Source: Nonomuraea typhae
GTDB taxonomy: Bacteria; Actinomycetota; Actinomycetes; Streptosporangiales; Streptosporangiaceae
Assembly (NCBI RefSeq): GCF_009760925.1
Contig: NZ_VRLV01000022.1
Span: 62,001 to 126,000, forward strand
DNA: 64,000 nucleotides
Reading direction: 5' to 3'
The notes below the pieces were generated by a model that searched no databases, had not been told where the DNA came from, and was given only the letters and a program-made list of their open reading frames with translations. Of the stretch, positions 10,047 to 52,523 are shown one piece after another (position 1 is the first letter of the stretch; the number at the start of each line of letters is the position of its first letter). The translations under genes and the position numbers were made by a program.

Positions 10047-10072
10047 CGCCATGACCAGCCTTCTCCGGCCCT

Positions 10073-10099: not shown

Positions 10100-10116
10100 T
10101 CTCTTCCGAGAAGGGG

Positions 10117-10135: not shown

Positions 10136-10184
10136 ATGGGCTCTTGGAGATAGCACAAGGGTCTGATCAGGTCAAACAATCAAG

Positions 10185-10226: not shown

Positions 10227-10264
10227 TTGTTGGTTGCCGTTGTTCACGGTCATTCGTCGGCAGT

Positions 10265-10283
10265 GTGCTGACCTTGTGCTGAC
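10265..10283. repeat. tandem gtgctgac repeat, left end of element
   Basis: gtgctgac-ctt-gtgctgac, period 11 bp; the same arrangement with gtt as spacer occurs at 15759-15777. Possible arm-type binding sites for the integrase. Confidence 0.6.
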
Positions 10284-10379
10284 CCGTGATGATGGCCGAA
10301 CCGCTAGAGGGGTTGACGAACTGCTGATCGCAGGGGACGGTCACGTGGTAGCTCGAACATCACCAGGAGGCGCAATCTC

Positions 10380-10685: not shown

Positions 10686-11127
10686 GCTGCGCGACGACTA
10701 CCAGATAGACCACGACCTGCTGAACACATGGCGACGGGACCCCGCCGAAGTGCTGGCGGGTCCCGCGCTCGTCTGGCGGGATCAGGTAGTCCAAGACCAT
10801 GCTGCTGGGCAAAGCTGGCGGCGGCTGCGTGTGGTGTCTGAACCGCTTTCGGAGTACCACAGATTCGCCTACATCTTCGCTGGGCCGGGAGTCGCTGCGG
10901 GGGAGCAAATGCGTTACCTTCCGCGCCGACTGGTCTCGGCTGTTCCTCTGCCCGGCAACGACTGCTTCGTGCTGGACGGCCAGTTGGCCATGTTCAATGT
11001 GCTCGACGGCAACAACAACCGTGTAGATGTTCAGCTAACGGACAACCCCGACGTGGTGAAGTTCTGCCGCGACTCATTCGAGGCGGCCTGGATGATGGCG
11101 ACGCCTTACCCTCAATATCAGGTCTAG
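10618..11127 (+). CDS. DUF6879 family protein
   Basis: A 169-residue protein starting MESISPERRGELLSKSRHYLKLELRDDY, preceded by AAGGAG. WRRLRVVSEPLSEYHRFAY, GEQMRYLPR and a C-terminal SFEAAWMMATPYPQY match the DUF6879 family, which is nearly always next to an XRE/DUF5753 regulator. It is 9 bp upstream of that regulator here. The biochemical role is unknown; a toxin- or partner-like role to the XRE protein has been suggested by genomic context only. Confidence 0.87.
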   Translation: MESISPERRGELLSKSRHYLKLELRDDYQIDHDLLNTWRRDPAEVLAGPALVWRDQVVQDHAAGQSWRRLRVVSEPLSEYHRFAYIFAGPGVAAGEQMRYLPRRLVSAVPLPGNDCFVLDGQLAMFNVLDGNNNRVDVQLTDNPDVVKFCRDSFEAAWMMATPYPQYQV

Positions 11128-11136
11128 AACTGCACT

Positions 11137-11994
11137 ATGACCGAGCAAGCAGATGTCGCAAAGAAAGCGTTTGGCGCCAGACTCCGCAATATTCGTCGTG
11201 ACGCTGGAATGAACGCAAAACAGTTGGCGGAAAGACTGGGTTGCCATCCCGCGAAGATCAGCCGTATCGAGTTGGGGCAGTCCAACGCATCTGAGGACGA
11301 CATCCGGGAATGGGCCATCGCCTGCGGGGTGGCGCGACTCCTTCCCGAACTGATCGCGACTCGCCGCGAGATCGCGCTCATGTGGGAGGAGCACCGCCAG
11401 GCCATGCGGGCCGGGCAGCCATACATCCAGGCGCAGGGGACCGCCCTGTATGAGCGGACAAAACTGTTGAAGGTCTATGAATCCGGGGTTGTTCCGGGCA
11501 TCCTGCAAACGCGCGGCTACGTCTATGGCGTCATGGAAGCCAATGCGCACCTATATGGACTACCCACAGATGATCTGACAGAAGCAACAGATGCCAGACT
11601 TTCGCGCCAACATCTAGTCACTGACGGCCACAATAGGTACGCGTTTGTTCTGGAAGTCGGGGCACTCAATGCTTCCATGGGTGACACCGAGGCAATGCAC
11701 GAGCAGTTCGACTTTCTCATTCGGGTTAGTAGGCTGCCCAACGTCTCACTCGGCATCATTCCCTCGGCAAGGCGGAGGATTCTGTATCCGGGGGAATGTT
11801 TCTACATTTTCGATGATCAGCTCGTCCGTGACGATCTCTGGACGGGGCGAATCCGGACCAATAGGCCGGATGAGATCGCTGTGTATCTGAAAGCGTTCGA
11901 GATGCTCCGCTCGATGGCCGTGTACGGAGATCCAGCCCGAGCCCTGGTCGAAGAGGCTCGGAGACGCTTGCCGCAATCAGGCGCAATTTCGTAG
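11137..11994 (+). CDS. XRE-family regulator with DUF5753 (Scr1-type) domain
   Basis: A 285-residue protein. Residues 7-75 are a Cro/C1 helix-turn-helix: FGARLRNIRRDAGMNAKQLAERLG, CHPAKISRIELGQSNASEDDI. Residues ~100-280 are the DUF5753 domain (YERTKLLKVYESGVVPGILQTRGYV; LRVSRLPNVSLGIIPS is the recognisable core). These pair with DUF397 and DUF6879 proteins in actinomycete development and antibiotic control. Here all three partner types lie within 2 kb on the mobile element. ATG 11137 gives the usual N-terminus. Confidence 0.93.
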   Translation: MTEQADVAKKAFGARLRNIRRDAGMNAKQLAERLGCHPAKISRIELGQSNASEDDIREWAIACGVARLLPELIATRREIALMWEEHRQAMRAGQPYIQAQGTALYERTKLLKVYESGVVPGILQTRGYVYGVMEANAHLYGLPTDDLTEATDARLSRQHLVTDGHNRYAFVLEVGALNASMGDTEAMHEQFDFLIRVSRLPNVSLGIIPSARRRILYPGECFYIFDDQLVRDDLWTGRIRTNRPDEIAVYLKAFEMLRSMAVYGDPARALVEEARRRLPQSGAIS

Positions 11995-38213: not shown

Positions 38214-39368
38214 ATGGAAGACCTGCTGCGCATAGACGACCGGCTCAACCCTGACCAGCGCCTGATCCGCGACACCGTGAAAAGTTTCGTGGCCGACCGC
38301 ATCCTCCCCAACGTGGGCGACTGGTTCGAGCAGGGCACATTCCCCTCCCGCGAACTGGCCCCGGTCCTGGGCGAACTGGGCCTCCTCGGCATGCACCTGG
38401 AGGGCTACGGCTGCGCCGGCACCGACGCGACCTCGTACGGCGTGGCCTGCCGTGAGCTGGAGGCCGGCGATTCCGGTCTGCGATCCTTCGTCTCCGTCCA
38501 GGGCTCGCTGGCGATGTTCCCCATCTGGAAGTACGGCTCGGCCGAGCAGAAGGAGGAGTGGCTCCCCCGCATGGCCGCCGGCCAGGCGATCGGCTGCTTC
38601 GGCCTCACCGAGCCCGACCACGGCTCCGACCCGTCCGGCATGCGCACGTACGCCAAGCGGGACGGCTCCGACTGGATCCTCAACGGCTCCAAGATGTGGA
38701 TCACCAACGGCTCCGTGGCGGACGTGGCCGTTGTCTGGGCCCAGACCGACGAAGGCATCCGAGGCTTCGTGGTCCCGACCGACACCCCCGGCTTCTCCGC
38801 CCCCGAGATCCACAAGAAGCTCTCCCTGAGGGCATCGATCACCTCATCCCTGTACTTCGACGACGTCCGCCTCCCCGCCTCCGCCGTCCTCCCCGAAGTG
38901 TCGGGCTTGAAGGGCCCCCTGTCCTGCCTGTCGGAGGCCCGTTTCGGCATCCTGTGGGGGGTCGTGGGCGCCGCCCGCGCCTGCCTGGAGTCGGCCGTGG
39001 AGTACTCCAAGACCCGCGTGCAGTTCGACAAGCCGATCGGGGCGTTCCAGCTGACGCAGGAGAAGCTGGCATGGATGTACGTCGGCGTGGGCCAGGCATC
39101 CCTGACCGCCTTCCACCTGGGCGCCCTGAAGGACGCCGGCCAACTGCAGCCCCGGCAGGTCAGCTTCGGCAAACTGGCCAACGTCCGCGCCGCCCTGGAC
39201 ATCGCCCGCCAGGCCCGCTCCATCCTCGGCGGGAATGGGATCACCCTGGAGTACCCGGTCATCCGCCACATGAACAACCTGGAGAGCGTCCTCACCTACG
39301 AAGGCACCCAGGAAATCCACACGCTGGTCCTCGGCGAAGCCCTGACCGGCCTGGCCGCCTACCGCTGA
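38214..39368 (+). CDS. acyl-CoA dehydrogenase, glutaryl-CoA dehydrogenase-like
   Basis: A 384-residue FAD enzyme oxidising an acyl-CoA at the alpha-beta position. Flavin contacts CFGLTEPDHGSDPSGM and WILNGSKMWITNGSVAD; catalytic Glu in SVLTYEGTQEIHTLVLG; RVQFDKPIGAFQLTQEKLA is the substrate/dimer region. FGILWGVVGAARACLE and GNGITLEYPVIRHMNNLE resemble glutaryl-CoA dehydrogenase more than medium-chain forms, so decarboxylating activity on glutaryl-CoA is plausible. AGGAGG precedes ATG 38214. Confidence 0.93.
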   Translation: MEDLLRIDDRLNPDQRLIRDTVKSFVADRILPNVGDWFEQGTFPSRELAPVLGELGLLGMHLEGYGCAGTDATSYGVACRELEAGDSGLRSFVSVQGSLAMFPIWKYGSAEQKEEWLPRMAAGQAIGCFGLTEPDHGSDPSGMRTYAKRDGSDWILNGSKMWITNGSVADVAVVWAQTDEGIRGFVVPTDTPGFSAPEIHKKLSLRASITSSLYFDDVRLPASAVLPEVSGLKGPLSCLSEARFGILWGVVGAARACLESAVEYSKTRVQFDKPIGAFQLTQEKLAWMYVGVGQASLTAFHLGALKDAGQLQPRQVSFGKLANVRAALDIARQARSILGGNGITLEYPVIRHMNNLESVLTYEGTQEIHTLVLGEALTGLAAYR

Positions 39369-39487
39369 CCCCTTTTGACGCCGCCGGGGCACTTGTTGCC
39401 CCGGAGGGGCTTGGGGGTGCGTTATCGTGGCCTGCGGTAAGCCCGTCGCGTACCGACGGGTAACCTCTGTACCCTGCATGTTGCGAG

Positions 39488-39560
39488 GGGCGTTAGCTCA
39501 ATTGGCAGAGCTGCGGACTTTTAATCCGTAGGTTCCGGGTTCGAGCCCCGGGCGCCCTAC
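39488..39560 (+). tRNA. tRNA-Lys (TTT)
   Basis: Acceptor gggcgtt/ggcgccc with two G-T pairs, D-arm gctcaattggcagagc, anticodon loop ctTTTaa within gcgga/tccgt, T-arm ccgggttcgagccccgg. It lies 110 bp from an integrase gene whose 3' end faces it, so its 3' half is the likely attB. Confidence 0.92.
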
Positions 39561-39583
39561 CACTCTGACCTGCGGATTTGCTG

Positions 39584-39609
39584 ACCTCTTGATCAAAGAA
39601 TCAAGAGGT
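39584..39609. terminator. hairpin after tRNA-Lys
   Basis: acctcttgat (39584-39593) and atcaagaggt (39600-39609), 10-bp stem, 6-nt loop. Serves tRNA-Lys or the convergent integrase gene. Confidence 0.7.
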
Positions 39610-39641
39610 GGGTCATACCTGGGTCACGCCTGGGACAAACC
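39609..39641. repeat. three tandem 11-bp repeats beside the integrase gene
   Basis: tgggtcatacc, tgggtcacgcc and tgggacaaacc run back to back. The 11-bp period equals that of the gtgctgac repeats in the lpdA element. Candidate arm-type integrase sites. Confidence 0.6.
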
Positions 39642-39669
39642 GACACCACGGACCATTTCGGCAAAGCGC

Positions 39670-40962
39670 CTATCGGGGCGGTCGGGTTGTTCGGCGACGT
39701 CGGAGTCGAATCGTCCGCTTCCGTAGTCTGTGACCTGCCCTTCGCGCTGTGCTCATCACCAGGCGTGCCGTCGCCTCGGCCGCCTCGTGATGAAGTTCGG
39801 GCAGCACCGAGGTGTAGGTGTCGGAGGTCAGCACGATGCTGGCGTGCCCGAGCTGACCCTGGACCGTACACGGGTCAACATGCGCCGCCAACGCGGTGGA
39901 GGCGGCGCCGTGCCGCAGGTCATGCAGCCGTACCGGAGGCAGCCCACTGGCCGCCACCAGATAGCGGAACCGATATGTCAGGTAGTCCGGTCGTATCGGC
40001 TGACCGTCCTCACGGGTGAACACCCAGCCAGCGACATCCAGCCCCTTCTGGTGCTGGCGTTGCTGATGGCGACGTAGAAGGCGGGTCGTCTCGGTGTCCA
40101 AGGCGATTGTGCGCTGACTCGCCTCGCTCTTGGGCGGGACGACTTGCAGCCGGCCATTGACGTGGATGAGCTGCTGGACGACCGTAAGTTCGCGGGTCTC
40201 CAGGCCGATGTCCACCCACCGCAGGCCGACGAGCTCGCCGCGACGCAAGCCGCGCAACGCGGCCAGCCACCACAGCGTATGCAACGCGTCCTCGCGGACG
40301 TAGTCCAAGAACGCCGTCAGGTGCTCCGTCGTCCACACCGCCACCGCCGGACGCTGTCCCGTGGCCTGCCACACCGCTACGCGACTTCGAGTCCAAACCT
40401 GGGCGTGAGGCCGCCGGGTACGCGGCAGCCCCAACCGGCGTGCCGGGTTCGTGTCAATGAGACCTTCGCGGATCGCCTCGTTGAGTGCCACCCGCAAGGT
40501 GGCGTGGACCCTCTGCACAGTGGACGGCGACAGCGCCTTGCCGTACCGATTTCGCCGCTGAGTTAGGCCGGCGAAGAAGCGGCGGAGATCGACTGGCCCG
40601 AGTTCCGCAATCGGGATCCGGCCCAAGCCAGGGACCAGGTGGATTCGCACATGATCGGCATAGCCTTGCCTAGTACGCTCGCGGACGAACTGGAGGGTAG
40701 CCAGCCAGTGGCGCAACCACTGCGCCACGGTGCACGCTGCGCTCACCCCACCTGGGTCATCAGCGGCGGCGAGTTCGCGGGCAGCGCGCATGGCGTGCTC
40801 TGCAGTACGAAAGCCGCCCCGCCGCACCCGCTCCCTACGTCCGCTCGGGCCCAGCACCTGGATCGCGAAGTACCACGAACCGTGACCTTCGTCAGCCAGA
40901 TCCGGGCAGGCCCTGTCATGATCTGAGCACCCGCACCGCTTGTACACCACCGGCTCGCCCAT
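39670..40962 (-). CDS. tyrosine recombinase (integrase) of the tRNA-Lys element
   Basis: A 430-residue phage-type integrase. N-terminal KRCGCSDHDRACPDL zinc-like lead and a core-binding domain (TVAQWLRHWLATLQFVRERTRQGY). Catalytic residues: Arg in ALRGLRRGELVGLRW, HDLRHGAAS, QLGHASIVLTSDTY with the nucleophile Tyr in SDTYTSV. The C-terminus is a highly basic tail (RLRKRTIRLRRRR). ATG 40962 with GGAGAGGGG upstream. The 3' end points at tRNA-Lys, the usual geometry for tRNA-targeting elements. Confidence 0.94.
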   Translation of the reverse strand: MGEPVVYKRCGCSDHDRACPDLADEGHGSWYFAIQVLGPSGRRERVRRGGFRTAEHAMRAARELAAADDPGGVSAACTVAQWLRHWLATLQFVRERTRQGYADHVRIHLVPGLGRIPIAELGPVDLRRFFAGLTQRRNRYGKALSPSTVQRVHATLRVALNEAIREGLIDTNPARRLGLPRTRRPHAQVWTRSRVAVWQATGQRPAVAVWTTEHLTAFLDYVREDALHTLWWLAALRGLRRGELVGLRWVDIGLETRELTVVQQLIHVNGRLQVVPPKSEASQRTIALDTETTRLLRRHQQRQHQKGLDVAGWVFTREDGQPIRPDYLTYRFRYLVAASGLPPVRLHDLRHGAASTALAAHVDPCTVQGQLGHASIVLTSDTYTSVLPELHHEAAEATARLVMSTARRAGHRLRKRTIRLRRRRTTRPPR

Positions 40963-41164
40963 CTTGCTCCCCTCTCCTCCACTAGCAAGACGGGCAAATC
41001 AGGAAGACGTGACGTCGTTCGAGCGATGTTCGTACAACGCCGGGCTCGTCCCGCAGCATCACCGTCCGTATCACCCGCCCCAGCGGGCCTCGTCTCTGTG
41101 GGATCGAGACTGAACAGGTCTGGTACGCAGACAGAGACTCATATCTCGGACCCGCTGATTAAGG

Positions 41165-44100
41165 TCAGCTGTCAGGAAGAGGCTCGGCACTCGTCTGCGT
41201 TGACTTCGGCGGCCTCGTCGCTGATTCTGGAACCGGGAGCACGCCAGTTGCGGCGAGGTCAGCCTGGCCTACCAGCGGCCCCGAGCACACGTCGGCCAGC
41301 ACCTGGTCCTGCTCGGGGTGCATCAGGACACATCCGGTCAAGACGGAAAGCAGTGCCAGGAATTCGAGTGTCAACTCACGGTTCCACGAGTCCTGCGTGA
41401 CGTCGTCGAGGCTGGATGTCCGGCGCTTGTTTCGAGGCTGGAGGGTCCGGTCGTTCAACCACCGCCACACGATGCGCCGACCAGAAACCGTGTAGTCGAT
41501 GACCTCCTGACGTACGGGGGCGAATGTTCCGCTGCCCACTGTGAGTGTCTGCGTTCTGGGGTCGTAGTCGAGGTGCTCGTCGAGCCGCTCAGGGAGTGCC
41601 CGAACGGCGGTGAGGCACTTGACGCCGAACCGTTCGACAAGGGCACGTTCTGAGCGTCCCCGCCCTGCGGCGGGATCAACGCAGCGGCTGCCGTAGGTGT
41701 GGAGCCAGAGAATCTCGCGTCCGATCGCCACTGCCCGATCCCACAGCTTCGGATCCGCCGTGAGCGGGACGCGGACGCCCGGTTGCCGAAGATACTCCCG
41801 GAATCGGCTGGTGTATCCGGGATGCGCGGTGATCGCCGCGATATACGCCAGCACGTCGTCTGCACAGATGGGAGTGCCCAACCGGATGCGGAGGTGTTCG
41901 AGCAGGTGCCGGGTCATATTGGGGACGCTGCCCAGGCAATCGCGCCAGAGCGGACGCACACCGCCGCCGCCCCAGCCCTTGAAGTTATCCAGGTCGGGGA
42001 TGAGCCCGGAGAAAACCAAAGCCGGGCCATCAGTAATCTCGTGGGAGTCCTGCTCGGAAACGTAGATCTGGTGCTCGGATCGGACTTGCCAGAGTGGCGG
42101 ACGGGCCATGACGAGAAGCCGGTTGTCGGGGATGAGCCACTGCCGATCGAACGAGCGGTAGGCCACCTGGATCGGCTCGGGACACGGCCCTGACTCCTCT
42201 ACCAGCGAGCGTTGGACTGGTGGGAACCCAGGCAGCGGGCCGACTCGGCTGTGCAGAGTGCGATCCCGCCCCTCTCTGAAAAGTTTCCGCTGGTCCTCGG
42301 TCGAGGCAGCAAGGAGGGTCTGCCACCGGGTGCGCAGGACCTCGACGGTGGGCGCGTACACCCACGCTCGTCCTGCCGTGACGCCCCTCGACCGCCACGG
42401 CATCAGGTCACCGAGCGAGGGGAACGCCGCCCATTGCGCGTCGGGGGCCGGGAGGAAGGAGTCCTGCCACCCGCTACCGCAGGAATGCCAGCACGGTCCT
42501 GTCGTCGTCAACTGCGCCAGCGCGGCTGTCTTCTCCTCACGCGTTCCGTGTAACTCCAGATGGCGGACCACCGCAGGCTTCTCCGCGTCGGAGTCAGCCG
42601 TCCTGGCGAAGACCAGGATGCTGAGCTGGCGCCCAACATCCTGTCCGAGGACTCGGGTCGCGATCGGCGGGCGGTTCCCTTCCGGTGTGAGCTCGATGAC
42701 CCAGCCCAGGTCACACGTGCGTCGCAAATACTGGCGCAGGCCCCGGAAAGCAGCACCTCTGACCACGCTCGACGGGACGATAAACGCCACTACGCCTTCC
42801 GGCATACGATGTTCGGCCTCGAACACTTTCCAGGCCGCCCACCGCAGGAAGTACCACGGCATTCCATGCAGGTCCGATTCGTAGCGGCCGAGGCCGTCGG
42901 CTCGGAACTCGTCAAGCGAGGGGCGATCAACCCTGGCTCCGAGCCGGGGCATCCCTTTGCGAGGCCGTTCGATCCATTCGGCTCGGCCCTTGGCGTTCTC
43001 CACATGCGGCGGGTTCCCGATTACCACCATCACCGGGACTCTGCGCTTGATGTCGTTCGCCTTGTCCCGTGCCTCCTCCATCACTCGGTACGGCGCGCCC
43101 AGCGTTGGCTGCACATGGTGTGGGTCGGCTAATGCGTCGGTGAGAAATCGCAGGGCCTCAGGTGGGGTCTCCACCGCGAACCGGCTCTGGAACGATCCAT
43201 GGATCCGTAGCTCAGCCACAGCGTACGGGGCTACCTGGATCTCGAACCCGATCAGCCGGTCGGTGACCAGGTCGTTGACGTAGTCATCCCGCGACCCGTA
43301 CCCGAGCTTGTCTGCAACCCGGTCCGCGACACAGCCGATGACCTCGACCAGAAAGGTGCCGGTTCCCATCGCCGGGTCGACAACCACCACGTTGTCGTCG
43401 GCGAACCCCCACTCCTTATCAAGGTGCTCACGAAGCACCGCGTCCACGAACCGAACAAGATGGCGGGCGACGCTGACCGGGGTGTAGTAAGAGCCGGTCT
43501 CCTTGCGGAGAGTGGGGTCGTAGCTCGCGAGGAAGTGTTCGTAGAGATAGGCGTAGGCATCTGCCGGGCTGACGTCGAGCGTCTGCAGATCGGCGACGCT
43601 GACCACGCGGCGAAGGGTCTCGATGGTGTTGAGCTCATCGTCGGCCCCGCTGGTGAGCACCGCGAACGCCTGCCCCATCAGCAGGTGTCGTTTGCCCAGC
43701 TTCCGAGCGATCTCCTGATAGGACTCGCCAACCAGGTTGATACCATCCGAGCGGGCCAGCAGCAGCGCGAACGTGACGGTCTGGGCAAAGGCGTCGGCGA
43801 AGCGCTCATGGTTGAGCCCCGGGAATAGCAGTTTCCGCCAGTCGTCGGCCAGCAGCGCCAGCCTCATCTGGGAGCGCTTCTTCAACGGGTCGGTGATTGC
43901 GGCGTACACTTCGTCCTTCAACAGGCCACACAGCCCACCCAGGATCTTTACGAGAGAGCCCAGCGTCCGAGGAGACTCTGGCTCCCAGAGCATGAACCGC
44001 CGGACGATACCCATCAGGTCGACGACGGCCGACGCCGCCGGACGCCGCAACTCCGCGACGGTATTCGCCAGCCTGACAATCGGCGAGATCCGTTCGCCGA

Positions 44101-44503
44101 ACGAGTACTGCGCCCAGGTGACCCCGTCCGAGTAGACCACATTGGGAAGGGCGGAGAGCTTGCCCCACTGCTCCAAATCCCGCTTGTCGGGGCGCCACTC
44201 GGGCGCTCCTGGCACTCCCTTGCCCGGTCTCTTCAACTCGACGTAGCCGACGCGGACCTGTCCAATGTTCACCGCATAGTCCGGCCGCGCCCGCAGATGC
44301 TTCAACCGCACCTCGCCGTAGGGGATCGCCTCGACACCGATCAACGCGCCGAGGTCGCGCAGCAGGGACTCCAACGGGCCACGGAACTGGTCCTCTTCCG
44401 CTCCACCCAGCCCTCGCTTCTCCACCACCGTGCGGCCGAACCTGGCCACGATCGCGTCCGCGGTGGTTCCGGTGTCGAGCTTGGGAACTCGGGCCACACA
44501 CAC
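41165..44503 (-). CDS. fused restriction-modification enzyme (type ISP/IIG-like)
   Basis: A 1112-residue single-polypeptide enzyme. N-terminal nuclease: RARPDYAVNIGQVRVGYVELKRPGKG fits a D...ExK site (Asp and Glu-x-Lys, residues ~74-92). A helical part leads to the gamma-class methylase: ETGSYYTPVSVARHLVRFVD, AdoMet motif VVVDPAMGTGTFLVEV (about 375), catalytic VMVVIGNPPHVENAKG (NPPH). The last ~450 residues match the type ISP C-terminal specificity region (WLIPDNRLLVMARPPLW, ALVFSGLIPD). No helicase is present, unlike LlaGI, so it may cut without translocation. It starts at GTG 44503 or the next GTG (after GGAGG). Likely cargo of the tRNA-Lys element. Confidence 0.88.
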   Translation of the reverse strand: MCVARVPKLDTGTTADAIVARFGRTVVEKRGLGGAEEDQFRGPLESLLRDLGALIGVEAIPYGEVRLKHLRARPDYAVNIGQVRVGYVELKRPGKGVPGAPEWRPDKRDLEQWGKLSALPNVVYSDGVTWAQYSFGERISPIVRLANTVAELRRPAASAVVDLMGIVRRFMLWEPESPRTLGSLVKILGGLCGLLKDEVYAAITDPLKKRSQMRLALLADDWRKLLFPGLNHERFADAFAQTVTFALLLARSDGINLVGESYQEIARKLGKRHLLMGQAFAVLTSGADDELNTIETLRRVVSVADLQTLDVSPADAYAYLYEHFLASYDPTLRKETGSYYTPVSVARHLVRFVDAVLREHLDKEWGFADDNVVVVDPAMGTGTFLVEVIGCVADRVADKLGYGSRDDYVNDLVTDRLIGFEIQVAPYAVAELRIHGSFQSRFAVETPPEALRFLTDALADPHHVQPTLGAPYRVMEEARDKANDIKRRVPVMVVIGNPPHVENAKGRAEWIERPRKGMPRLGARVDRPSLDEFRADGLGRYESDLHGMPWYFLRWAAWKVFEAEHRMPEGVVAFIVPSSVVRGAAFRGLRQYLRRTCDLGWVIELTPEGNRPPIATRVLGQDVGRQLSILVFARTADSDAEKPAVVRHLELHGTREEKTAALAQLTTTGPCWHSCGSGWQDSFLPAPDAQWAAFPSLGDLMPWRSRGVTAGRAWVYAPTVEVLRTRWQTLLAASTEDQRKLFREGRDRTLHSRVGPLPGFPPVQRSLVEESGPCPEPIQVAYRSFDRQWLIPDNRLLVMARPPLWQVRSEHQIYVSEQDSHEITDGPALVFSGLIPDLDNFKGWGGGGVRPLWRDCLGSVPNMTRHLLEHLRIRLGTPICADDVLAYIAAITAHPGYTSRFREYLRQPGVRVPLTADPKLWDRAVAIGREILWLHTYGSRCVDPAAGRGRSERALVERFGVKCLTAVRALPERLDEHLDYDPRTQTLTVGSGTFAPVRQEVIDYTVSGRRIVWRWLNDRTLQPRNKRRTSSLDDVTQDSWNRELTLEFLALLSVLTGCVLMHPEQDQVLADVCSGPLVGQADLAATGVLPVPESATRPPKSTQTSAEPLPDS

Positions 44504-44832
44504 CTCCGGTCGACGACCAGCACCCCACTCACTGTGACCGCCGCATCAAAATCCATCAAGATACGAAACGGAAACCATGCCACTGAGCGCGAGCTCCCAC
44601 CGGCCCGGCCCGCTGCGCTGGACCTATCACGGACCGTGACTTGCTCAGCCTCACGCCATCGCTCATGCAGACGGGCAGACGAAGTCCCGCTACACCATCG
44701 AGGGTCGTCCTCTCGGTCTACTTGAGCCTGAGAGGGCGTTGCGCGAGTAGATGTCTTTGATGTCGCAGTGTGATCGGGTGGTTTTATAGCGTTACCGCCT
44801 GTCGGCCGGTGCGCGTGTGCTGAGATGGCTGG

Positions 44833-45666
44833 GTGAGCGAGCGCAAGCCGTACCCGAGTGACTTATCCGACGAGCAGTGGGCGTTGATCGAACCGGTGAT
44901 CACGGCGTGGAAGGCCGCGCACCGCTCCGTCAGCGGCCACCAGGGCAACTACGCGATGCGCGAGATCGTCAACGCGATCCTCTACCAGGGCCGGACCGGC
45001 TGCCAATGGCAGTACCTGCCGCACGACCTGCCGCCGGGTAGCGCGACCTACTACTACTTCGCCAAATGGCGCGACGACGGAACCGCCCAGAAGATCTGCG
45101 ACCTGCTGCGCTGGCACGTGCGGGAGAACAAGGGCCGATTAGCCGATCCGAGCCTGGTCGTGCTGGACACCCAGAGCGTGCACGCCTCAGCCGGGGTCCC
45201 CCCCACCACGACCGGAAAGGATGCGGCCAAGAAGGTGCCGGGCCGCAAACGTGGCCTGGCCGTGGACGTGCTCGGCCTGGTCATCGCCGTGGTCGTGCTG
45301 GCCGCCTCAGCCCACGACAACACCGCCGGGATCGCTCTGCTGGACCGCATCGCCGCCCACACCGGCGCCACTGTGACCAAAGCACTGGCCGACCAGGGGT
45401 TCAAGAACTCGGTCGTCGACCATGGCGTCACCCTCGGGATCGACGTGGAGATCGTCGAACGCAATCCCGCCAACCGTGCCTTCGTCCCCCAGCCGAAACG
45501 ATGGATCGCCGAGCAGACCTACGGCACCTTGATGCTGCACCGGCGCCTGGTACGCGACTACGAGCACCTGCCGGCCAGCTCCGAATCACGGGTGTATTGG
45601 GCGATGACAGCCGTGATGTCCCGCCGCCTGGCCCACGGCCCCGCTCCGTCGTGGCGCTCGTCGTGA
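44833..45666 (+). CDS. IS5-family transposase
   Basis: A 277-residue transposase. DUF4096-type N-terminus YPSDLSDEQWALIEPVI, AILYQGRTGCQWQYLPHDLPP. DDE residues: Asp in LVVLDTQSVHAS, Asp in KALADQGFKNSV, Glu in KRWIAEQTYGTLMLHRRLVRDYEHL. No stop or frameshift; probably active. GTG start 44833. The stop overlaps the accessory ORF start in GTGA form. Confidence 0.93.
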   Translation: MSERKPYPSDLSDEQWALIEPVITAWKAAHRSVSGHQGNYAMREIVNAILYQGRTGCQWQYLPHDLPPGSATYYYFAKWRDDGTAQKICDLLRWHVRENKGRLADPSLVVLDTQSVHASAGVPPTTTGKDAAKKVPGRKRGLAVDVLGLVIAVVVLAASAHDNTAGIALLDRIAAHTGATVTKALADQGFKNSVVDHGVTLGIDVEIVERNPANRAFVPQPKRWIAEQTYGTLMLHRRLVRDYEHLPASSESRVYWAMTAVMSRRLAHGPAPSWRSS

Positions 45667-46103
45667 CCAGAGCCGGCGGGCAGGAGCCAGATCCCGGCAC
45701 GTGGCTGCTGGACAAGATCGATGCCCGTGAACAGGCCGTGACCTGCCAGATCGAGCAGACCCGCGCCGAGATCGACACCCTGACCACACGACTGCGCGAC
45801 CTCGAACAAGCGGCCGAGCACCTGCGGATCACCCGCAAGACGCTGCTCAGTCTCGCCGACCAGCCTGGGGCCGGGAATGTCCCGCCGGCTCCCGTCCTCC
45901 CCAGCCACCCCGCCTACCGGCAGATCCTGGACCTGTTCGCCGACTACGGCCGGCCTCTACGAGCACGCGATCTGTGCGAGGCCATGGACCTACCCATCGT
46001 CGCGAAGAACACCGAGAAGATCCGCGCCAAGCTCAAACGCCTGGTCAGCCAGGGCATCCTCGCCGAGACCGAACCCGGCTTGTTCACTCAGCCGCGTCCG
46101 TAG
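45663..46103 (+). CDS. IS accessory protein: coiled coil plus winged helix
   Basis: A 146-residue protein inside the IS. Residues ~15-60 are a heptad-rich coiled coil (TCQIEQTRAEIDTLTTRLRD, LEQAAEHLRITRKTLLSLA); residues ~75-146 look like a winged helix (YRQILDLFADYGRPLRARDL, KIRAKLKRLVSQGILAETEP). It is coupled to the transposase by GTGA overlap. The role is unknown; DNA-binding helper or regulator of transposition is plausible. Confidence 0.8.
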   Translation: MTRAGGQEPDPGTWLLDKIDAREQAVTCQIEQTRAEIDTLTTRLRDLEQAAEHLRITRKTLLSLADQPGAGNVPPAPVLPSHPAYRQILDLFADYGRPLRARDLCEAMDLPIVAKNTEKIRAKLKRLVSQGILAETEPGLFTQPRP

Positions 46104-46406
46104 CTTCACCGCAACGCTCCTCACCAGCCTGCCCTGCTCAAATCCAAGCGACCAAAGGGGCACCAACTCACGCAACGCCCTCTGAGATGCGAAAACGCAG
46201 ACCCGTCCAACCACAGGCCAAGCCGACTGAAACCAACCCTGGCGGCACGGCCCGGAACGGCCTTCGTGAAGCAGTCAGGTGTGTAGTCCCGGAATCCGGG
46301 CTGCCTCGATGGGCCTGGAAGAACCCGCTATCGACCAGCCAGCGGTGCGAACCGTGCCGGAAGCGGAAGCTGATTTCCAGGTCGGGCCGCCACTGGGTGC
46401 CCTGAG

Positions 46407-46922
46407 TCAGCCCGCCGGACGCTCCACGACGCCGATCACGCTGGACACAGCGATGGTTCCGCCGCCAGGGCGGTCCTGACGGGTGCGGGAGTCGGCGGCG
46501 GCGGCACGGTTGTCTCCCAGCACCCAGAGCCGATCAGGCGGAACCGTGACGGAGAACATGCTGGTGGACGACGGGCTCATGCCCTGGAGATAGGGCTCGT
46601 CCAGCGGCTTGCCGTCGACTACCACGCGTCCTTGCCCGTCACAGCAGTCGACCCGATTGCCGGGCACCCCGATCACGCGGTAGACGAAGACGCCGTCCGC
46701 CCACTCGGGGGCCTTGAACGCGACGATGTCACCCGGCTTCGGCGGCCTGCCGTCCTTGAGCGGCTGAGCGGTGACCGTGGTTCCCCGTTCGATCGTGGGT
46801 TCCATGGCATCGCTGTTGACCTGGATCTTGGCGCCGCCCGTGATCTGCGACACCATGCCGCACCCCGTCAGCAGCGTCATGCTCAGCAGAGCCGCGGCAA
46901 CCCTCATCATCACCCATCCCAT
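46407..46922 (-). CDS. S26 signal-peptidase-like lipoprotein, catalytic dyad absent
   Basis: A 171-residue protein with a lipoprotein signal (LLSMTLLTGCGM). The S26 fold is clear: VNSDAMEPTIERG, PGDIVAFKAPE, YRVIGVPGNRVDCCDGQGRV, PPDRLWVLGDNRAAAADSR. Yet the catalytic Ser, expected just before Met in the SM-x-PT motif, is Ala, and the catalytic Lys before RVIG is Tyr. It is therefore probably not a protease. ATG 46922; inner Met codons at 46910 and 46907 are alternatives. Stands alone between the mobile region and the transposase remnant. Confidence 0.87.
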   Translation of the reverse strand: MGWVMMRVAAALLSMTLLTGCGMVSQITGGAKIQVNSDAMEPTIERGTTVTAQPLKDGRPPKPGDIVAFKAPEWADGVFVYRVIGVPGNRVDCCDGQGRVVVDGKPLDEPYLQGMSPSSTSMFSVTVPPDRLWVLGDNRAAAADSRTRQDRPGGGTIAVSSVIGVVERPAG

Positions 46923-47009
46923 AGGGGAAACAAGGCCAGTAAATCTAGCCGACCAGTCCTCCCGACGCTCCCGGACTCCCAGTCCGAGCGCAGGATGCCG
47001 TACGCGATC

Positions 47010-47290
47010 GAGTCATACGTCTTGCCGCCTGCCCGAGCGTCCGATGTGGTCGATGCTCGTTGTAAAACGTCTCGAACTCTCGCAGCGCGTGGAGTAAATG
47101 AGGTTGGTTCCAGATCAGGGTGCGGTCCAGCGGTTCGCGACGGCAGGTCTGTATCCAGCGCTCCATGGTGGAGTTCATGCGCGGGATGCGGATGCCTGTG
47201 GTGACGACCGACCGGTGTGGGAGCGATGCCGTGCTCTTTCGAGATCCCCCACACGGTGGAGGCGGTGATCTTGATGCCGAGTGCGGTCTC
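47010..47290 (-). pseudogene. integrase-core transposase remnant (rve type), internal deletion
   Basis: Reverse-strand pieces: LGIKITASTVWGISKEHGIAP in one frame, then NSTMERWIQTCRREPLDRTL and HALREFETFYNEHRPHRTLG in another. These are the region before and the C-terminal part of an IS481/IS3-like rve transposase; the segment with the first catalytic Asp residues is deleted. Lies directly after the ECF41 gene end. Confidence 0.85.
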
Positions 47291-47297
47291 ACCGGGC

Positions 47298-48236
47298 TCA
47301 GCGGGTCACGGTGGTCTCCCGCTCGACGTGCGACAGCTTCTCGGGATTGCGCACGTGGTAGGCGCCGGTGACGTAGCCGTTCTCCACGCGCACCGCCACC
47401 ACTCCGTCGATCTTTCCGTCGACCCGTACGAGCAGTCCGGGGCCGCCATTGATCTGAACCAGCTCGACCGACCGTTCCGCGTCGCGTTTCCACCAGCCGA
47501 CGGCCAGGAGGCGAGCCACGTTGTCGATCCCCACGACGGGCCGCAGCAGGGCGTGCCTGACTCCGCCGCCGTCGCTCAAGGCGACGACATCGGGCGCGAG
47601 GACGTCCAGCAGGCTCTGCAACTCCCCGGTTTCGACAGCCCGCTGGAATGCCTGGAGCGCGGCCCGGGTCTCGGCCGGGGAGGTGAGGCCGCGGGGTCGG
47701 CGGGCGGCGACATGGGCGCGCGCCCGGTAGGCGATCTGGCGGACCGCGTTCGGGCTCTTGCCGACGGCTTCGGCGATCTCGTCGTAGTCCAGATCGAACA
47801 CCTCGCGCAGCACGAAGACCGCCCGCTCGGTCGGCTGCAACGTCTCCAGCACCAGCAGCATCGCCATCGAGACGCTCTCGGCGAGTTCGACGTCCTCGGC
47901 CACGTCGGGCGCGGTCAGCAACGGCTCGGGCAGCCACGGCCCGACGTAGGACTCTTTGCGCCGGCCGAGCGCGCGTAGCCGGTCCAGCGCCTGCCGGGTG
48001 ACGATCCGCACCAGGTAGGCGCGCTCCTCCCGCACGGTGCCGAGATCGACGTCCACCCAGCGCAGCCAGGTCTCCTGCAGGACGTCTTCGGCGTCGGCGG
48101 CCGAGCCGAGCATCTCGTAGGCGACGGTGAACAGCAGGTTGCGGTGGGCGACGAACGCCTGGGTGGCGGAGTCGACGTGGTCGGCACGATCGAGCGGCTC
48201 GGCTGGGTCTGGACTCGGTTCCCTCCGCTCGGTCAT
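47298..48236 (-). CDS. ECF41-type RNA polymerase sigma factor (SigJ-like)
   Basis: A 312-residue sigma factor. Region 2 (FVAHRNLLFTVAYEMLGSAADAEDVLQETWLRW), region 4 (LQPTERAVFVLREVFDLDYDEIAEAVGKSPNAVRQIAYRARAHV) and a C-terminal SnoaL-like extension of ~120 residues with VQINGGPGLLVRVDGKIDGVV. SWLPEP-like GPWLPEPLL sits in the linker. ECF41 factors lack a separate anti-sigma; the extension controls activity. ATG 48236 is chosen from the family N-terminus. Divergent from its usual targets (CMD-like and epimerase-like genes). Confidence 0.93.
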   Translation of the reverse strand: MTERREPSPDPAEPLDRADHVDSATQAFVAHRNLLFTVAYEMLGSAADAEDVLQETWLRWVDVDLGTVREERAYLVRIVTRQALDRLRALGRRKESYVGPWLPEPLLTAPDVAEDVELAESVSMAMLLVLETLQPTERAVFVLREVFDLDYDEIAEAVGKSPNAVRQIAYRARAHVAARRPRGLTSPAETRAALQAFQRAVETGELQSLLDVLAPDVVALSDGGGVRHALLRPVVGIDNVARLLAVGWWKRDAERSVELVQINGGPGLLVRVDGKIDGVVAVRVENGYVTGAYHVRNPEKLSHVERETTVTR

Positions 48237-48280
48237 GCCCCGCTCCTGCCTGTTCGTTCTCAGCACTGCCACACGCATAA

Positions 48281-48307
48281 GACGTGGGTCTCCATCGCTT
48301 TGTAACA
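48281..48307 (-). promoter_or_regulatory. putative ECF41 promoter of the sigma gene
   Basis: On the reverse strand: TGTTACA, 16-nt spacer, CGTC. Close to the ECF41 consensus TGTCACA/CGTC as I recall. Implies autoregulation. Confidence 0.65.
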
Positions 48308-48340
48308 CCCACGTAGGTGGCCTATGTCACATGGCCGCGC

Positions 48341-48367
48341 TGTTACAGGGATCGGGGCGCCGGCGTC
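48341..48367 (+). promoter_or_regulatory. putative ECF41 promoter of the divergent operon
   Basis: TGTTACA (48341-48347), 16-nt spacer, CGTC (48364-48367): same elements and spacing as on the other strand. A TGTCACA at 48325-48331 is also present but badly spaced. Confidence 0.65.
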
Positions 48368-48444
48368 TCGTGGTCGTCAGCACGCCGCGCGAGCGATCCG
48401 TACGGCACCACGACGAGTTGAGAATGAGAAGGGAAGTCTTCCCC

Positions 48445-48942
48445 ATGTCCTCGCCCACGACGACCGACCAGCGGTCGCGCATGCCCAATCCCCTCCCCTT
48501 CCTCCCCGAGATGGCGGAAGTCAGCCAAGGTCTACACAAAGCCCTCCAGAACGGCGCGATTCCGCAGACCACCATCCACCTGCTGCAGTTGCGCGCCGGG
48601 CAAATCCTCGGCAGCACGTACTTCGCCATCCGGGAGACCGGCAACCTCCGCCGGTTGGGGGAATCGGAGGAGCGCATCACCGCCGTGGCCACCTGGCGGG
48701 ACGCCACCTACTTCACCGACGCCGAACGAGTCGCGCTGGAGCTGGTGGAGGCGGTCCTCACCCCGAACCCGTCCGGGGAGCGCGTCCCCGACGAGCTGTA
48801 CGGCAGGGCGTCGGCGCACTACGACGACCAGGCGATGTGGTCGCTCATCATGGTCATCGCCCACATCGGCTTCTTCACCCCCGCCGCTCTCATCGCCAAG
48901 CCGATCCCCGGCATGCCACCCGGCCGGAACTACAGCGAGTAA
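48445..48942 (+). CDS. carboxymuconolactone decarboxylase/AhpD-like protein, redox motif lost
   Basis: A 165-residue protein of the CMD/AhpD fold: LPEMAEVSQGLHKALQNG, IPQTTIHLLQLRAGQILGSTY, ESEERITAVATWRDATYFTDAERVALELVEAVL. The usual CxxCxxxH redox motif after LRAGQ is replaced by STYFAIRET, so peroxidase activity by that mechanism is unlikely. ATG 48445 is preferred. First gene of the ECF41-controlled operon; 15 bp before the NmrA-like gene. Confidence 0.9.
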   Translation: MSSPTTTDQRSRMPNPLPFLPEMAEVSQGLHKALQNGAIPQTTIHLLQLRAGQILGSTYFAIRETGNLRRLGESEERITAVATWRDATYFTDAERVALELVEAVLTPNPSGERVPDELYGRASAHYDDQAMWSLIMVIAHIGFFTPAALIAKPIPGMPPGRNYSE

Positions 48943-48957
48943 GGAAGGAGCACCAGC

Positions 48958-49710
48958 ATGAGCAGCACCACGTTCGCGGTGGCGGGAGCGACCGGGCGGC
49001 TGGGCCGCCACGTCGTCGACGTCCTGACCGAGCGGGGACACCGGGTCGTGCCGATGTCCCGCGCCACCGGGGTGGACATCATCACCGGTGAGCGCCTTGC
49101 CGAAGCCCTCACCGGGGTCGAGGTCATCATCGACGTCGCATCCTGGCACTCCTCCGACCAGGACGCCGCGACGGAGTTCTTCCGTACGTCGGCCCGCAAT
49201 CTGCACGAGGCCGGCCGCAAGGCCGGGGTCGCCCAGATCGCCATGGCCTCCATCATCGGTGCGGACAAGGCCACCGCCGGCTTCCTCGCCGCCAAGAAGG
49301 TGCACGAGGAACTCCTGCTGTCCGGCCCGATCCCCGTCCGCATCCTGCGGGCCGCGCAGTTCCACGAGTTCGTCGGCCAGCTCCTGGACTGGCAGCAGGG
49401 CGACGTCGCCTACCTCCCGGCCCTGCCCGCCCAGCTCGTGGCCTGCCGTACCGTGGCCGAGGAACTGGTGGACCTGGCCTCCGCCCCCTCGGCCCCCGCA
49501 CCACCGATCCCCGAGATCGCCGGCCCTCGCAGGGAGATCCTGGCCGAGGCGGCCCAGCTCCTCGGCGCCCGCCGAGGCATCAAGGTCGTCGGCGTCGACG
49601 GGTCCGGCATGCCCGACGCCGAGATCGCCGCCAACGGCGCCTTCCTGCCCGGCCCGCACGCCAAGCTCGCCGGCCCCACCTTCCAGGAGTGGCTCGGCAC
49701 CCAGCCCTGA
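48958..49710 (+). CDS. NAD(P)-binding NmrA/SDR-type protein (epimerase-like)
   Basis: A 250-residue atypical SDR: Rossmann motif FAVAGATGRLGRHVVDVL, TGVEVIIDVASWH, then a catalytic region without the classical YxxxK (AKKVHEELLLSGPIPVRILRAAQFHEF). This group binds NAD(P)H and acts as a quinone reductase or redox sensor. AAGGAGG precedes ATG 48958. Its place after a CMD-like gene and divergent from an ECF41 factor is the classic ECF41 neighbourhood. Confidence 0.92.
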   Translation: MSSTTFAVAGATGRLGRHVVDVLTERGHRVVPMSRATGVDIITGERLAEALTGVEVIIDVASWHSSDQDAATEFFRTSARNLHEAGRKAGVAQIAMASIIGADKATAGFLAAKKVHEELLLSGPIPVRILRAAQFHEFVGQLLDWQQGDVAYLPALPAQLVACRTVAEELVDLASAPSAPAPPIPEIAGPRREILAEAAQLLGARRGIKVVGVDGSGMPDAEIAANGAFLPGPHAKLAGPTFQEWLGTQP

Positions 49711-49836
49711 GCCGACCTTGCCCTTGTCCTCGGAACTCCCCCTCCCGGGGCCGAGAACAAGGGCTCCCCCGAGCCGCACCCCCCGGCGACTCAGCGGCTG
49801 CCTCTTCGAACGACATCCTCAGAAAGGGGCTCACTC

Positions 49837-49908
49837 AAGCCCGTCACCACGACCGCACTCGTCCTCATCGACCTGCAGAACCTCGTCGTCGGCCTCCCCA
49901 CCAAGTAA
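49837..49908 (+). pseudogene. N-terminal scrap of an isochorismatase-family hydrolase
   Basis: The frame reads VTTTALVLIDLQNLVVGLPT then stops. LVLIDLQN.VVGLPT is the first motif (catalytic Asp) of isochorismatase-like hydrolases. No start codon and no further part of the gene; abuts the hydrolase fragment on the other strand. Confidence 0.7.
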
Positions 49909-51947: not shown

Positions 51948-52523
51948 GTGAGTGATACGGGCGGCCGTACCGCGCGGTCGCGGGCGGCCATACTCCAGAC
52001 GGCGCTCGACATGTGCACCGAGCAGTCCTACGCGGCGGTGACCATGGAGGCCATCGCCACCCGCGCACGGGTCGGCAAGCCGACGCTGTATCGCTGGTGG
52101 CCCTCCAAAGGGGCGCTGATGCTGGACGCGTTGCGCGAATGCCTCGAGCGACGCTACGGCCAGCCGTACTTCCTCATCCCCGACACCGGCGACCTCGCCG
52201 CAGACCTGCGCGCCTGGCTGCACACCATGGTCGAGGTGTTCACCGACCAGCAGGTGCGGGGGCTGCTCGCGGGGGTCGCGGGCACGGCCCAGCATGACCC
52301 CCAGCTCGCCGCCATCCTCAAACAGGAGGTCTACGGCCCTCTGTCGGGGCACAACCGCGAACGAATCCGGCGGGGACAGGAGCGAGGGCAAGGGGCGGGG
52401 CTCGATCCGCACCTGCTGGAGGACCTCCTCATCGCGCCCCTGTGGTACCGGCTGCTGGTGATCGACCAGCCCCTCGGCCCGGACTACGCCGACCGGGTGA
52501 TCGACGCCGTCCTGAGACCCTGA
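51948..52523 (+). CDS. TetR-family regulator (TetR_C_11-like)
   Basis: A 191-residue regulator. DNA-binding part: RSRAAILQTALDMCTEQSYAAVTMEAIATRARVGKPTLYRWW (residues 10-55). The ligand domain has TDQQVRGLLAGVAGTAQHDP and PLWYRLLV typical of the TetR_C_33/C_11 group. GTG 51948. Divergent from two SDR genes. Confidence 0.94.
   Translation: MSDTGGRTARSRAAILQTALDMCTEQSYAAVTMEAIATRARVGKPTLYRWWPSKGALMLDALRECLERRYGQPYFLIPDTGDLAADLRAWLHTMVEVFTDQQVRGLLAGVAGTAQHDPQLAAILKQEVYGPLSGHNRERIRRGQERGQGAGLDPHLLEDLLIAPLWYRLLVIDQPLGPDYADRVIDAVLRP

What the first reader, a model, noticed from the sequence alone, without database searches (positions are those of the whole stretch)
39488..46186. tRNA-Lys-linked mobile region carrying a single-chain restriction-modification enzyme
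Integrase facing tRNA-Lys, then a 1112-aa nuclease-methylase-specificity fusion and an intact IS. The enzyme has ExK nuclease and NPPH methylase motifs but no helicase, differing from LlaGI-like type ISP enzymes. The distal att was not found by eye.
Basis: partly seen in the sequence, partly recalled or inferred. Interest (0 to 1): 0.62.

Follow-up and report, generated by a model that had tools for sequence, protein, structure and literature searches.

The report
Ordinary restriction enzyme on tRNA-Lys element
A soil actinomycete carries, in what looks like a broken-up mobile element lodged in one of its lysine tRNA genes, an intact one-protein DNA-cutting and DNA-marking defence enzyme of an already known family (the TaqII type), so the find is real but ordinary, with a few useful details about how such enzymes travel and may change their target.

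Summary
A tRNA-Lys(TTT) gene is followed by a convergent tyrosine integrase, an intact 1112-aa nuclease–methylase–specificity protein and a complete IS5-family element. The enzyme is not a new type. It is a full-length, helicase-less member of the TspGWI/TaqII subfamily of Type IIC/IIG enzymes: 35% identical to the characterised TaqII and TaqIII, with the same PD-X13-E-X-K and DPAMGTG motifs, and NPPH where they have NPPY. RefSeq calls such proteins "type ISP". Structurally it matches DrdV along the whole chain and LlaBIII/LlaGI in the methylase–specificity part only. The integrase is tRNA-Lys specific: 11 of 11 relatives of 62% or more have a tRNA-Lys 3' half beyond their 3' end. The missing distal att exists as an exact 48-bp copy, followed by an integrase-free flank also seen behind intact tRNA-Lys genes, but on another contig beside a tRNA-Met integrase; the element seems to have been split. 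Near relatives of the enzyme often sit at tRNA-Lys att relics (8 of 10 loci, against 3 of 30 distant ones; strong matches only, 5 against 1). A sister species has the same integrase with the enzyme gene truncated. Best reading: a standard mobile defence cargo, still under purifying selection.

The parts
39487..39562 (+). tRNA-Lys (anticodon TTT), integration target
   Evidence: ARAGORN and Rfam
39518..39565 (+). attL core: anticodon loop to just past the tRNA 3' end (48 bp)
   Evidence: exact second copy at G000:C1:4390-4437 (-); att copies in related loci share identity from exactly this point
39670..40962 (-). tyrosine integrase, 430 aa, tRNA-Lys specific
   Evidence: PF00589; motifs LRGLRRGE, HDLRHG and LGHASIVLTSDTYTS present (their reading as the R-HxxR-H-Y set is recalled); 11 of 11 relatives of 62% or more have a tRNA-Lys 3' half past the int 3' end, antisense
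41099..44589 (-). RM module: stretch shared as DNA with near relatives in other contexts
   Evidence: blastn limits to L132 (41099-44589) and L133 (41123-44587)
41165..44503 (-). Type IIC/IIG restriction-modification enzyme, 1112 aa, intact, TspGWI/TaqII subfamily
   Evidence: PADLOC PDLC03631 E 8e-262, residues 20-1100; TaqII/TaqIII 35% identity; AlphaFold pLDDT 86.6; dN/dS 0.12-0.16 in five pairs of near relatives
44102..44392 (-). PD-(D/E)XK nuclease domain (residues 38-134; D75, E89, K91)
   Evidence: D75, E89, K91 invariant in 35 homologues; domain model pLDDT 89.4, Foldseek DrdV E 6e-7
42554..43567 (-). gamma-class N6-adenine methyltransferase domain (residues 313-650)
   Evidence: PF02384; DPAMGTG and NPPH; LlaBIII/LlaGI fold match
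41366..42409 (-). Type_ISP_C specificity (TRD) domain (residues 699-1046)
   Evidence: PF18135 E 2.5e-69
41987..41989 (-). codon of Asp839, aligned with TaqII H817 / LlaGI H1368 (predicted base-3 determinant)
   Evidence: alignment; assignment from PMC5587805 passages
44733..46181 (+). complete IS5-family element, 1449 bp, transposase 44833-45666, 5-bp target duplication CTGAG
   Evidence: only match in the genome at E<=1e-50
45642..46103 (+). second reading frame inside the IS; start codon not determined
   Evidence: translation; only a sub-threshold HTH_IclR match, E 0.0086
46945..47400 (-). fragment of an rve_3 transposase at the junction with the sigJ block
   Evidence: PF13683; the same kind of IS truncates the enzyme gene in G211

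Best explanation
This is the tRNA-Lys-proximal (attL) half of an integrative element whose tyrosine integrase recombines in or next to the anticodon loop of tRNA-Lys(TTT) and rebuilds the tRNA 3' half. Its cargo is an intact single-chain Type IIC/IIG restriction-modification enzyme of the TspGWI/TaqII subfamily. The inferred mechanism: the C-terminal TRD and the methylase bind a short asymmetric site and methylate one adenine (N6) on host DNA. On unmethylated DNA the N-terminal PD-(D/E)XK nuclease cuts a fixed distance downstream (11/9 nt in TaqII) with no ATP motor, so it defends host and element against foreign DNA. An IS5-family element inserted beside it. Rearrangement then parted attL (contig C15) from attR (contig C1), so the element is probably no longer excisable. 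Shown: architecture, motifs, predicted fold, integrase target, the two att copies, purifying selection, spread. Inferred: enzymatic activity, site, defence role, that the C1 copy is the partner of this attL, and the route of the rearrangement.
For: Enzyme: PDLC03631 full length. TaqII and TaqIII plasmid genes match at 36% by tblastn over 94% of the query, 367/1049 and 369/1050 identical columns. Motifs are as in the published TspGWI subfamily table (PMC3384240 passages) except NPPH. D75, E89, K91, D376, P377, A378, G380 and N497-P499 are invariant in 35 homologues. Fold: Foldseek DrdV E 3.8e-39, LlaBIII 5.5e-31; VIA Z 34.9 for LlaBIII over residues 179-1078 and Z 33.7 for DrdV over 15-1073, the latter with rmsd 18.6. 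Nuclease alone: DrdV E 6e-7. dN/dS 0.12-0.16 in 5 pairs. Element: exact 48-bp att copy followed by a flank type that also follows an intact tRNA-Lys in 7 of the 28 other genus loci held with their tRNA; none of the 12 rows of that flank type had an integrase in the first 3 kb downstream (or as much as was held), whereas 22 of the other 32 rows did. Integrase target: 11 of 11 relatives of 62% or more. G211 has the same integrase, same tRNA and a truncated enzyme gene. tRNA-Lys 3' halves lie near the enzyme in 8 of 10 near loci against 3 of 30 distant ones, Fisher p 8e-5.
Against: No enzymatic data. NPPH replaces the Tyr that stacks on the flipped adenine in LlaGI (PMC4872093 passages). The two att copies are on different contigs of a draft with listed contamination 7.09, so the split could in part be an assembly error, and the C1 copy could belong to another element of the same hotspot. 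Only 7 of 39 relatives' loci (one place counted twice) show a tyrosine integrase in the fetched flanks, so the enzyme is not bound to this integrase. The 8-of-10 count is not phylogenetically independent; it includes three weaker matches (33-44 bp, 80-91%: L133, L064, L135), the window itself, and G211, which was fetched because of its tRNA. Strong matches only: 5 of 10 against 1 of 30 (p 0.002); strong and without window and G211: 3 of 8 against 1 of 30 (p 0.024). Below 62% identity the integrase link weakens: 1 of 4 at 55-57% and 7 of 14 at 44-51%.
Confidence: 0.85

Rival explanations
1. The enzyme is a Type ISP (LlaGI-like) ATP-dependent enzyme that works with a separate helicase subunit in trans, or a degenerate one that only methylates.
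For: RefSeq names homologues 'type ISP restriction/modification enzyme' (19 of the 20 plasmid records listed) and the TRD is Type_ISP_C.
Against: No helicase family in the protein and none among the int, transposase, S26 and rve_3 reading frames around it. LlaBIII/LlaGI align only from about residue 171-179 on, while DrdV aligns from residue 15. TaqII/TaqIII of the same architecture are described as Type IIC enzymes (PMC5587805 passages). Nuclease residues are invariant.
Confidence: 0.06
2. The enzyme gene is a long-standing chromosomal gene that the integrase merely landed next to.
For: In most relatives no tyrosine integrase lies in the fetched flanks (32 of 39 loci).
Against: Only 8 of 54 genus genomes have a homologue at E<=1e-100, the window's included. 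Around the 90-91% identical L132/L133 none of the other 32 predicted window genes searched matched. The DNA homology ends 66 and 86 bp outside the gene in L132 and 42 and 84 bp outside it in L133. Third-position GC is 0.79 against 0.93 and 0.88 in two neighbouring chromosomal genes.
Confidence: 0.05
3. The split of attL and attR is an assembly artefact, or the C1 att copy belongs to another element, and the element is intact in the real chromosome.
For: Draft of 54 contigs with listed contamination 7.09; the C1 copy lies only 4.4 kb from a contig end; tRNA-Lys is a hotspot with several element types.
Against: Contig C15 is 185 kb long and runs on well past the element; the sigJ block right of it (47296-49903) matches one stretch of G211:C31 at 92% and lies 0.3-7 Mb from tRNA-Lys in the five relatives where both are on one contig. 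The C1 junction attR-Lys / int / tRNA-Met is what an inversion between two oppositely oriented tRNA elements predicts.
Confidence: 0.2

Closest known systems
TaqII and TaqIII (Thermus aquaticus YT-1, plasmids NZ_CP020572 and NZ_CP020571), TspGWI subfamily, Type IIC/IIG
   Same: Full-length homology (35% of aligned columns), same order nuclease - helical - MTase - TRD, PD-X13-E-X-K, DPAMGTG, about 1100 aa, carried on mobile DNA
   Different: NPPH instead of NPPY; other residues at predicted base-contact positions (M799, D839, K842, G845), so a different predicted target; actinobacterial and chromosomally integrated rather than plasmid-borne
PADLOC model PDLC03631 (REase_MTase_IIG) / RefSeq 'type ISP restriction/modification enzyme'
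   Same: Covers residues 20-1100, E 8e-262; 19 of 20 listed plasmid records bear that RefSeq name under the match
   Different: Nothing of note; the RefSeq name suggests a helicase that this protein lacks
DrdV (PDB 7lo5, 7lvv)
   Same: Best whole-chain fold match, nuclease included
   Different: About 18-20% identity; different domain placement (rmsd 18.6 over 905 residues)
LlaGI / LlaBIII, Type ISP (PDB 5ffj, 4xqk)
   Same: MTase-TRD unit, Z 33.9-34.9 over 760-792 residues
   Different: They have a helicase-like ATPase and coupler; this one has none

Membership tests
TspGWI/TaqII subfamily, Type IIC/IIG RM enzymes | single chain of about 1100 aa with order R - helical - MTase - S | tested here: met
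   Pfam, AlphaFold model and fold matches; published order in PMC3384240 passages
TspGWI/TaqII subfamily, Type IIC/IIG RM enzymes | nuclease motif PD-X13-E-X-K | tested here: met
   P74 D75, E89, K91, exact spacing 13; 27 of 36 homologues have the same spacing
TspGWI/TaqII subfamily, Type IIC/IIG RM enzymes | SAM motif DPA(V/M)GTG | tested here: met
   DPAMGTG 376-382
TspGWI/TaqII subfamily, Type IIC/IIG RM enzymes | catalytic motif NPPY (as listed for TspGWI and TaqII) | tested here: inconclusive
   NPPH here; among 36 homologues Y 25, H 9, W 2, so a variant of the motif, not its loss
TspGWI/TaqII subfamily, Type IIC/IIG RM enzymes | cuts about 11/9 nt from a 5-6 bp asymmetric site, SAM-affected, ATP-independent | not testable with these tools
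   needs purified protein
Type ISP (LlaGI family) | superfamily 2 helicase-like ATPase between nuclease and MTase | tested here: not met
   no helicase family in Pfam or NCBIfam at E<=0.01; about 180 aa between the nuclease and MTase folds
Type ISP (LlaGI family) | Type ISP C-terminal TRD | tested here: met
   PF18135 E 2.5e-69; similarity of the TaqII/TaqIII TRDs to Type ISP TRDs is reported in PMC5587805 (passages)
Integrative element at tRNA-Lys | integrase next to the tRNA 3' end, with the tRNA 3' half repeated at the far end | tested here: inconclusive
   first half met: attL 39518-39565 and integrase specificity; an exact second copy with an integrase-free flank exists at C1:4390-4437, but it is not collinear, so its pairing with this attL is inferred
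Actinomycete integrative and conjugative element (AICE) | replication initiator and FtsK/TraB-type translocase genes (recalled definition) | tested here: inconclusive
   none among the genes between 39518 and 47400 that were scanned, but the right half of the element is not located
IS5 family | DDE transposase, terminal inverted repeats, short target duplication | tested here: met
   NF033580 160 bits against cut-off 110; repeats and 5-bp CTGAG duplication

The most novel reading that the evidence does not exclude
A clade of NPPH-type Type IIC enzymes has become a standing cargo of tRNA-Lys elements across several actinobacterial genera. It changes its DNA target by repeatedly toggling a few base-reading residues while the rest of the enzyme stays under purifying selection: D/H at 839 changed 3 times, and the triplet VMA/ARG at 798-800 twice, among 8 close relatives. 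Swapping alleles in this way would let each arriving element bring a restriction barrier against its own near relatives. NPPH would be a lineage-specific working variant of the adenine-methylase catalytic motif.
Probability: 0.3. Interest if true: 0.45.

Novelty: new member of a known kind. Interest (0 to 1): 0.27.

Why it matters
It gives an actinobacterial, element-borne member of a characterised enzyme family, corrects the expectation set by the 'type ISP' label (this protein has no ATP motor), fixes the integration core (from the anticodon loop on) of a widespread tRNA-Lys integrase, and supplies a small natural series of 74-94% identical enzymes that differ at predicted base-reading residues. 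That series could be used to test how single-chain RM enzymes change their target. It would also matter practically for transforming strains of this genus.

Tried and rejected
Distal att inside the window: no repeat of 12 bp or more of the tRNA region (39487-39600) on either strand; it was found by searching the whole genome. The window's right side as ancestral flank of tRNA-Lys: rejected, because the sigJ block maps to other contigs or, in the five relatives where it shares a contig with tRNA-Lys (G201, G217, G214, G226, G200), 0.3 to 7 Mb away. A reciprocal attR of tRNA-Met on C15: not found, only matches of 19-22 bp, so the inversion model lacks its second junction. The flank behind the C1 att copy as an arm of another element: tested and not supported, as none of the 12 rows of that flank type has an integrase in the stretch scanned (3 kb at most, about 1.4 kb for most rows); its homology beyond the core is short (about 100-119 bp at 74-82%, 200-258 bp at 69-71% in two). 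Enrichment of total changes at the 7 predicted base-contact residues: not significant (9 against 6.4 expected, p 0.25); only the narrower count of two-state recurrent columns stands out (3 of 7 against 12 of 241, p 0.003), and that measure was chosen after the first failed, so it is a lead. A full recognition-site prediction was dropped: only position 3 (D839, G expected) can be read from the published code, while M799, F760, G711, K842 and G845 have no assigned base. A profile of the nuclease part against PDB sequences gave designed helical proteins and other matches that look like chance. Phage records: 2 weak partial matches of 50,697 records, so phage carriage is not supported. Literature for the whole words NPPH and methyltransferase: 0 papers in the held library. 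For RM methylomes of this genus one search listed 2 papers, judged from title and abstract to be about Streptomyces coelicolor. A Fisher test run with preliminary counts (7/10 against 1/30, p 5e-5) was replaced by the final counts; two other groupings were tries and are not used.
Full report
WHAT IS THERE. The window is contig C15:62001-126000 of an 11.4-Mb actinomycete draft. Two same-genus genomes (G240, G212) have contigs of the same length as Nonomuraea turkmeniaca NZ_VCKY01000328 and N. harbinensis NZ_JAHKRN010000012, so the genus is probably Nonomuraea (inference). From left to right lie tRNA-Lys(TTT) 39487-39562, a convergent tyrosine integrase 39670-40962, the enzyme gene 41165-44503, and a complete IS5-family element 44733-46181 with a 5-bp target duplication. 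Then follow a signal-peptidase-like gene, a transposase fragment (46945-47400) and, from about 47296, a sigJ gene block.

THE ENZYME. All 1112 residues are intact. PADLOC PDLC03631 (Type IIG) matches residues 20-1100 at E 8e-262. Pfam sees N6_Mtase and the Type_ISP_C specificity domain. No helicase family matches in Pfam or NCBIfam at E<=0.01. Of 249 plasmid records with a match, the 20 best are listed and 19 of these bear the name 'type ISP restriction/modification enzyme' under the match, among them the two Thermus aquaticus YT-1 plasmid genes. By accession, PMC5587805 (passages) identifies those plasmids as the carriers of taqIIRM and taqIIIRM, two single-chain Type IIC enzymes with known sites. 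The window protein shares 367 of 1049 aligned columns with TaqII. The published subfamily table (PMC3384240, passages) lists PD-X13-E-X-K, DPA(V/M)GTG and NPPY for TspGWI/TaqII; here the first two are exact and the third is NPPH. NPPH occurs in 9 of 36 homologues, exactly the nearest ones (51% identity or more); NPPY occurs in 25 and NPPW in 2. In LlaGI the Tyr Y1021, by its place that of this motif (my reading), stacks on the flipped adenine (PMC4872093, passages), so His there is a modest oddity.

FOLD. An AlphaFold model from 35 homologues has mean pLDDT 86.6. Foldseek's best matches are DrdV (E 3.8e-39), then LlaBIII and LlaGI. On VIA-align the LlaBIII match covers residues 179-1078 (Z 34.9, rmsd 4.9, 792 aligned), and DrdV covers 15-1073 (Z 33.7, rmsd 18.6, which points to different domain placement). 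The nuclease part alone (pLDDT 89.4) matches only DrdV well (E 6e-7 to 1e-4 in 8 chains). A sequence profile of that part found no convincing solved relative. So it should work like TaqII/DrdV: no motor, one chain, cut at a distance. That last step is inference from family.

IS IT FUNCTIONAL? The frame is open, and the catalytic residues are invariant among 35 homologues. dN/dS is 0.12-0.16 in the five pairs tested, as expected of a protein under selection. Activity itself is not shown.

IS IT CARGO? The family is patchy: 27 of 200 sampled genomes of the taxonomic family and 8 of 54 of the genus, the window's own included in both. G211, whose tRNA-Lys region is the nearest (86% DNA identity over the 701-bp query), has the integrase at 91% and, next to it, only the last part of the enzyme gene (window 41100-42192, 86% DNA) cut off at an rve_3 insertion sequence. 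That is gain followed by loss at one site. Of ten near loci (72% identity or more, the window and G211 included) eight have a tRNA-Lys 3' half in the stretch held; of thirty distant loci three do, one of them a cross-match to a tRNA-Met gene (Fisher p 8e-5). Five of the eight are 45-bp matches of 97.8% or more; three are weaker. With strong matches only it is 5 of 10 against 1 of 30 (p 0.002); leaving out also the window and G211, 3 of 8 against 1 of 30 (p 0.024). In two Actinomadura species the att relic lies 195 bp past the enzyme's end. In a third, two tRNA-Lys(CTT)-like 3' halves (80-82% matches) flank a 9.5-kb segment holding a homologue whose frame is split in two. Against this: only 7 of 39 loci, one place counted twice, show a tyrosine integrase, and the loci differ in length (3 to 20 kb).

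THE INTEGRASE AND ITS SITE. Of 29 relatives found by integrase sequence alone, 19 have a tRNA-Lys 3' half beyond their 3' end, always antisense: 11 of 11 at 62% identity or more (nine of them at 85-127 bp; two are partial matches of 35 and 21 bp), 1 of 4 at 55-57%, and 7 of 14 at 44-51%. Four further rows (the window, and three loci fetched because of att or tRNA matches) agree. The att copies agree from exactly CTTTTAATCC, the anticodon loop, onward, so strand exchange most likely lies in or next to the loop.

THE DISTAL ATT. An exact 48-bp copy of 39518-39565 is at C1:4390-4437. I grouped what follows the tRNA-Lys 3' half in 44 rows of loci held. The C1 flank belongs to the largest group: 7 of the 28 other genus loci whose held stretch includes the tRNA have it behind an intact tRNA-Lys, and it also follows half-sites in G240 and G200. 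None of the 12 rows of this group (10 distinct places) has an integrase in the part scanned, while 22 of the other 32 rows do; so this flank looks like the chromosome, the others like element arms. The similarity is short: about 100-119 bp beyond the core at 74-82%, and 200-258 bp at 69-71% in two. On the other side of the C1 copy lie a different tyrosine integrase (35% identical) and then tRNA-Met. In seven relatives with both on one contig (four of them single-contig genomes) tRNA-Lys and tRNA-Met are on opposite strands, 1.8 to 8 Mb apart. An inversion between an element at each would give exactly this junction. The reciprocal junction was not found, and draft assembly error is not excluded. 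The window's right side (sigJ block) is found elsewhere in relatives, so probably more than one rearrangement occurred. The copy cannot be proved to be the partner of this very attL rather than of another element in the same hotspot: G200 has five further full or partial tRNA-Lys 3' halves within about 33 kb behind its tRNA-Lys.

SPECIFICITY. PMC5587805 (passages) ties residues of TaqII to bases. By alignment, the window has D839 at TaqII H817, where H goes with C and D/E with G. Among eight near homologues this residue changes D/H three times by parsimony, and VMA/ARG at 798-800 (TaqII 777) twice, with three codons changed together. The set of seven predicted contact residues does not change more than the rest of the TRD (p 0.25). 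The narrower count of two-state recurrent columns is in excess (p 0.003) but was picked afterwards. A lead, not a result.

NOVELTY. Type IIC systems are reported to be over-represented in mobile elements, and their compact build is suggested to let them change specificity faster (PMC4176335, passages). This is a new member of a known kind. The link of the near clade with tRNA-Lys elements, the NPPH variant and the toggling residues are the parts worth a specialist's note. I saw no paper on them in the searches made (listings only except the four papers of which I read passages).

Noticed in passing
locus L140 (own genome, C1:4390-7291): Fusion of the right end of a tRNA-Lys element with the left end (integrase) of a tRNA-Met element; fits a large inversion between elements in two oppositely oriented tRNA genes.
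   Followed up: partly
loci L138 and L139 (G200:C1:7004000-7043000): Five further tRNA-Lys 3'-half copies, two of them partial, within about 33 kb behind one tRNA-Lys: a tandem array of elements.
   Followed up: no
genus tRNA-Lys loci L068-L097 and others: At least eight different sequence types follow tRNA-Lys within one genus, most of the non-singleton ones with an integrase close by: several element families compete for this site.
   Followed up: partly
locus L064 positions 2184-11779: Two tRNA-Lys(CTT)-like 3' halves flank a 9.5-kb segment with a homologue of the enzyme whose reading frame is split in two.
   Followed up: partly
window 45642-46103: The IS carries a second open frame after the transposase, with no Pfam family above its cut-off (HTH_IclR below it).
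   Followed up: partly
window 46407-46922: Short signal peptidase I-like protein (171 aa) between the IS and the rearrangement junction; no match to its DNA was among those listed for 18 genus genomes (the list was cut).
   Followed up: partly
own genome C20:35412-35521 and 52072-52120; C16:21455-21510 and 38361-38403: Further tRNA-Met 3'-half copies, so tRNA-Met looks like a second integration hotspot in this genome.
   Followed up: no
locus L132 positions 5060-8032: Between the enzyme and the tRNA-Lys att copy lies a reading frame of 990 aa with right-handed beta-helix repeats and AAA+ modules, possibly another element gene.
   Followed up: no
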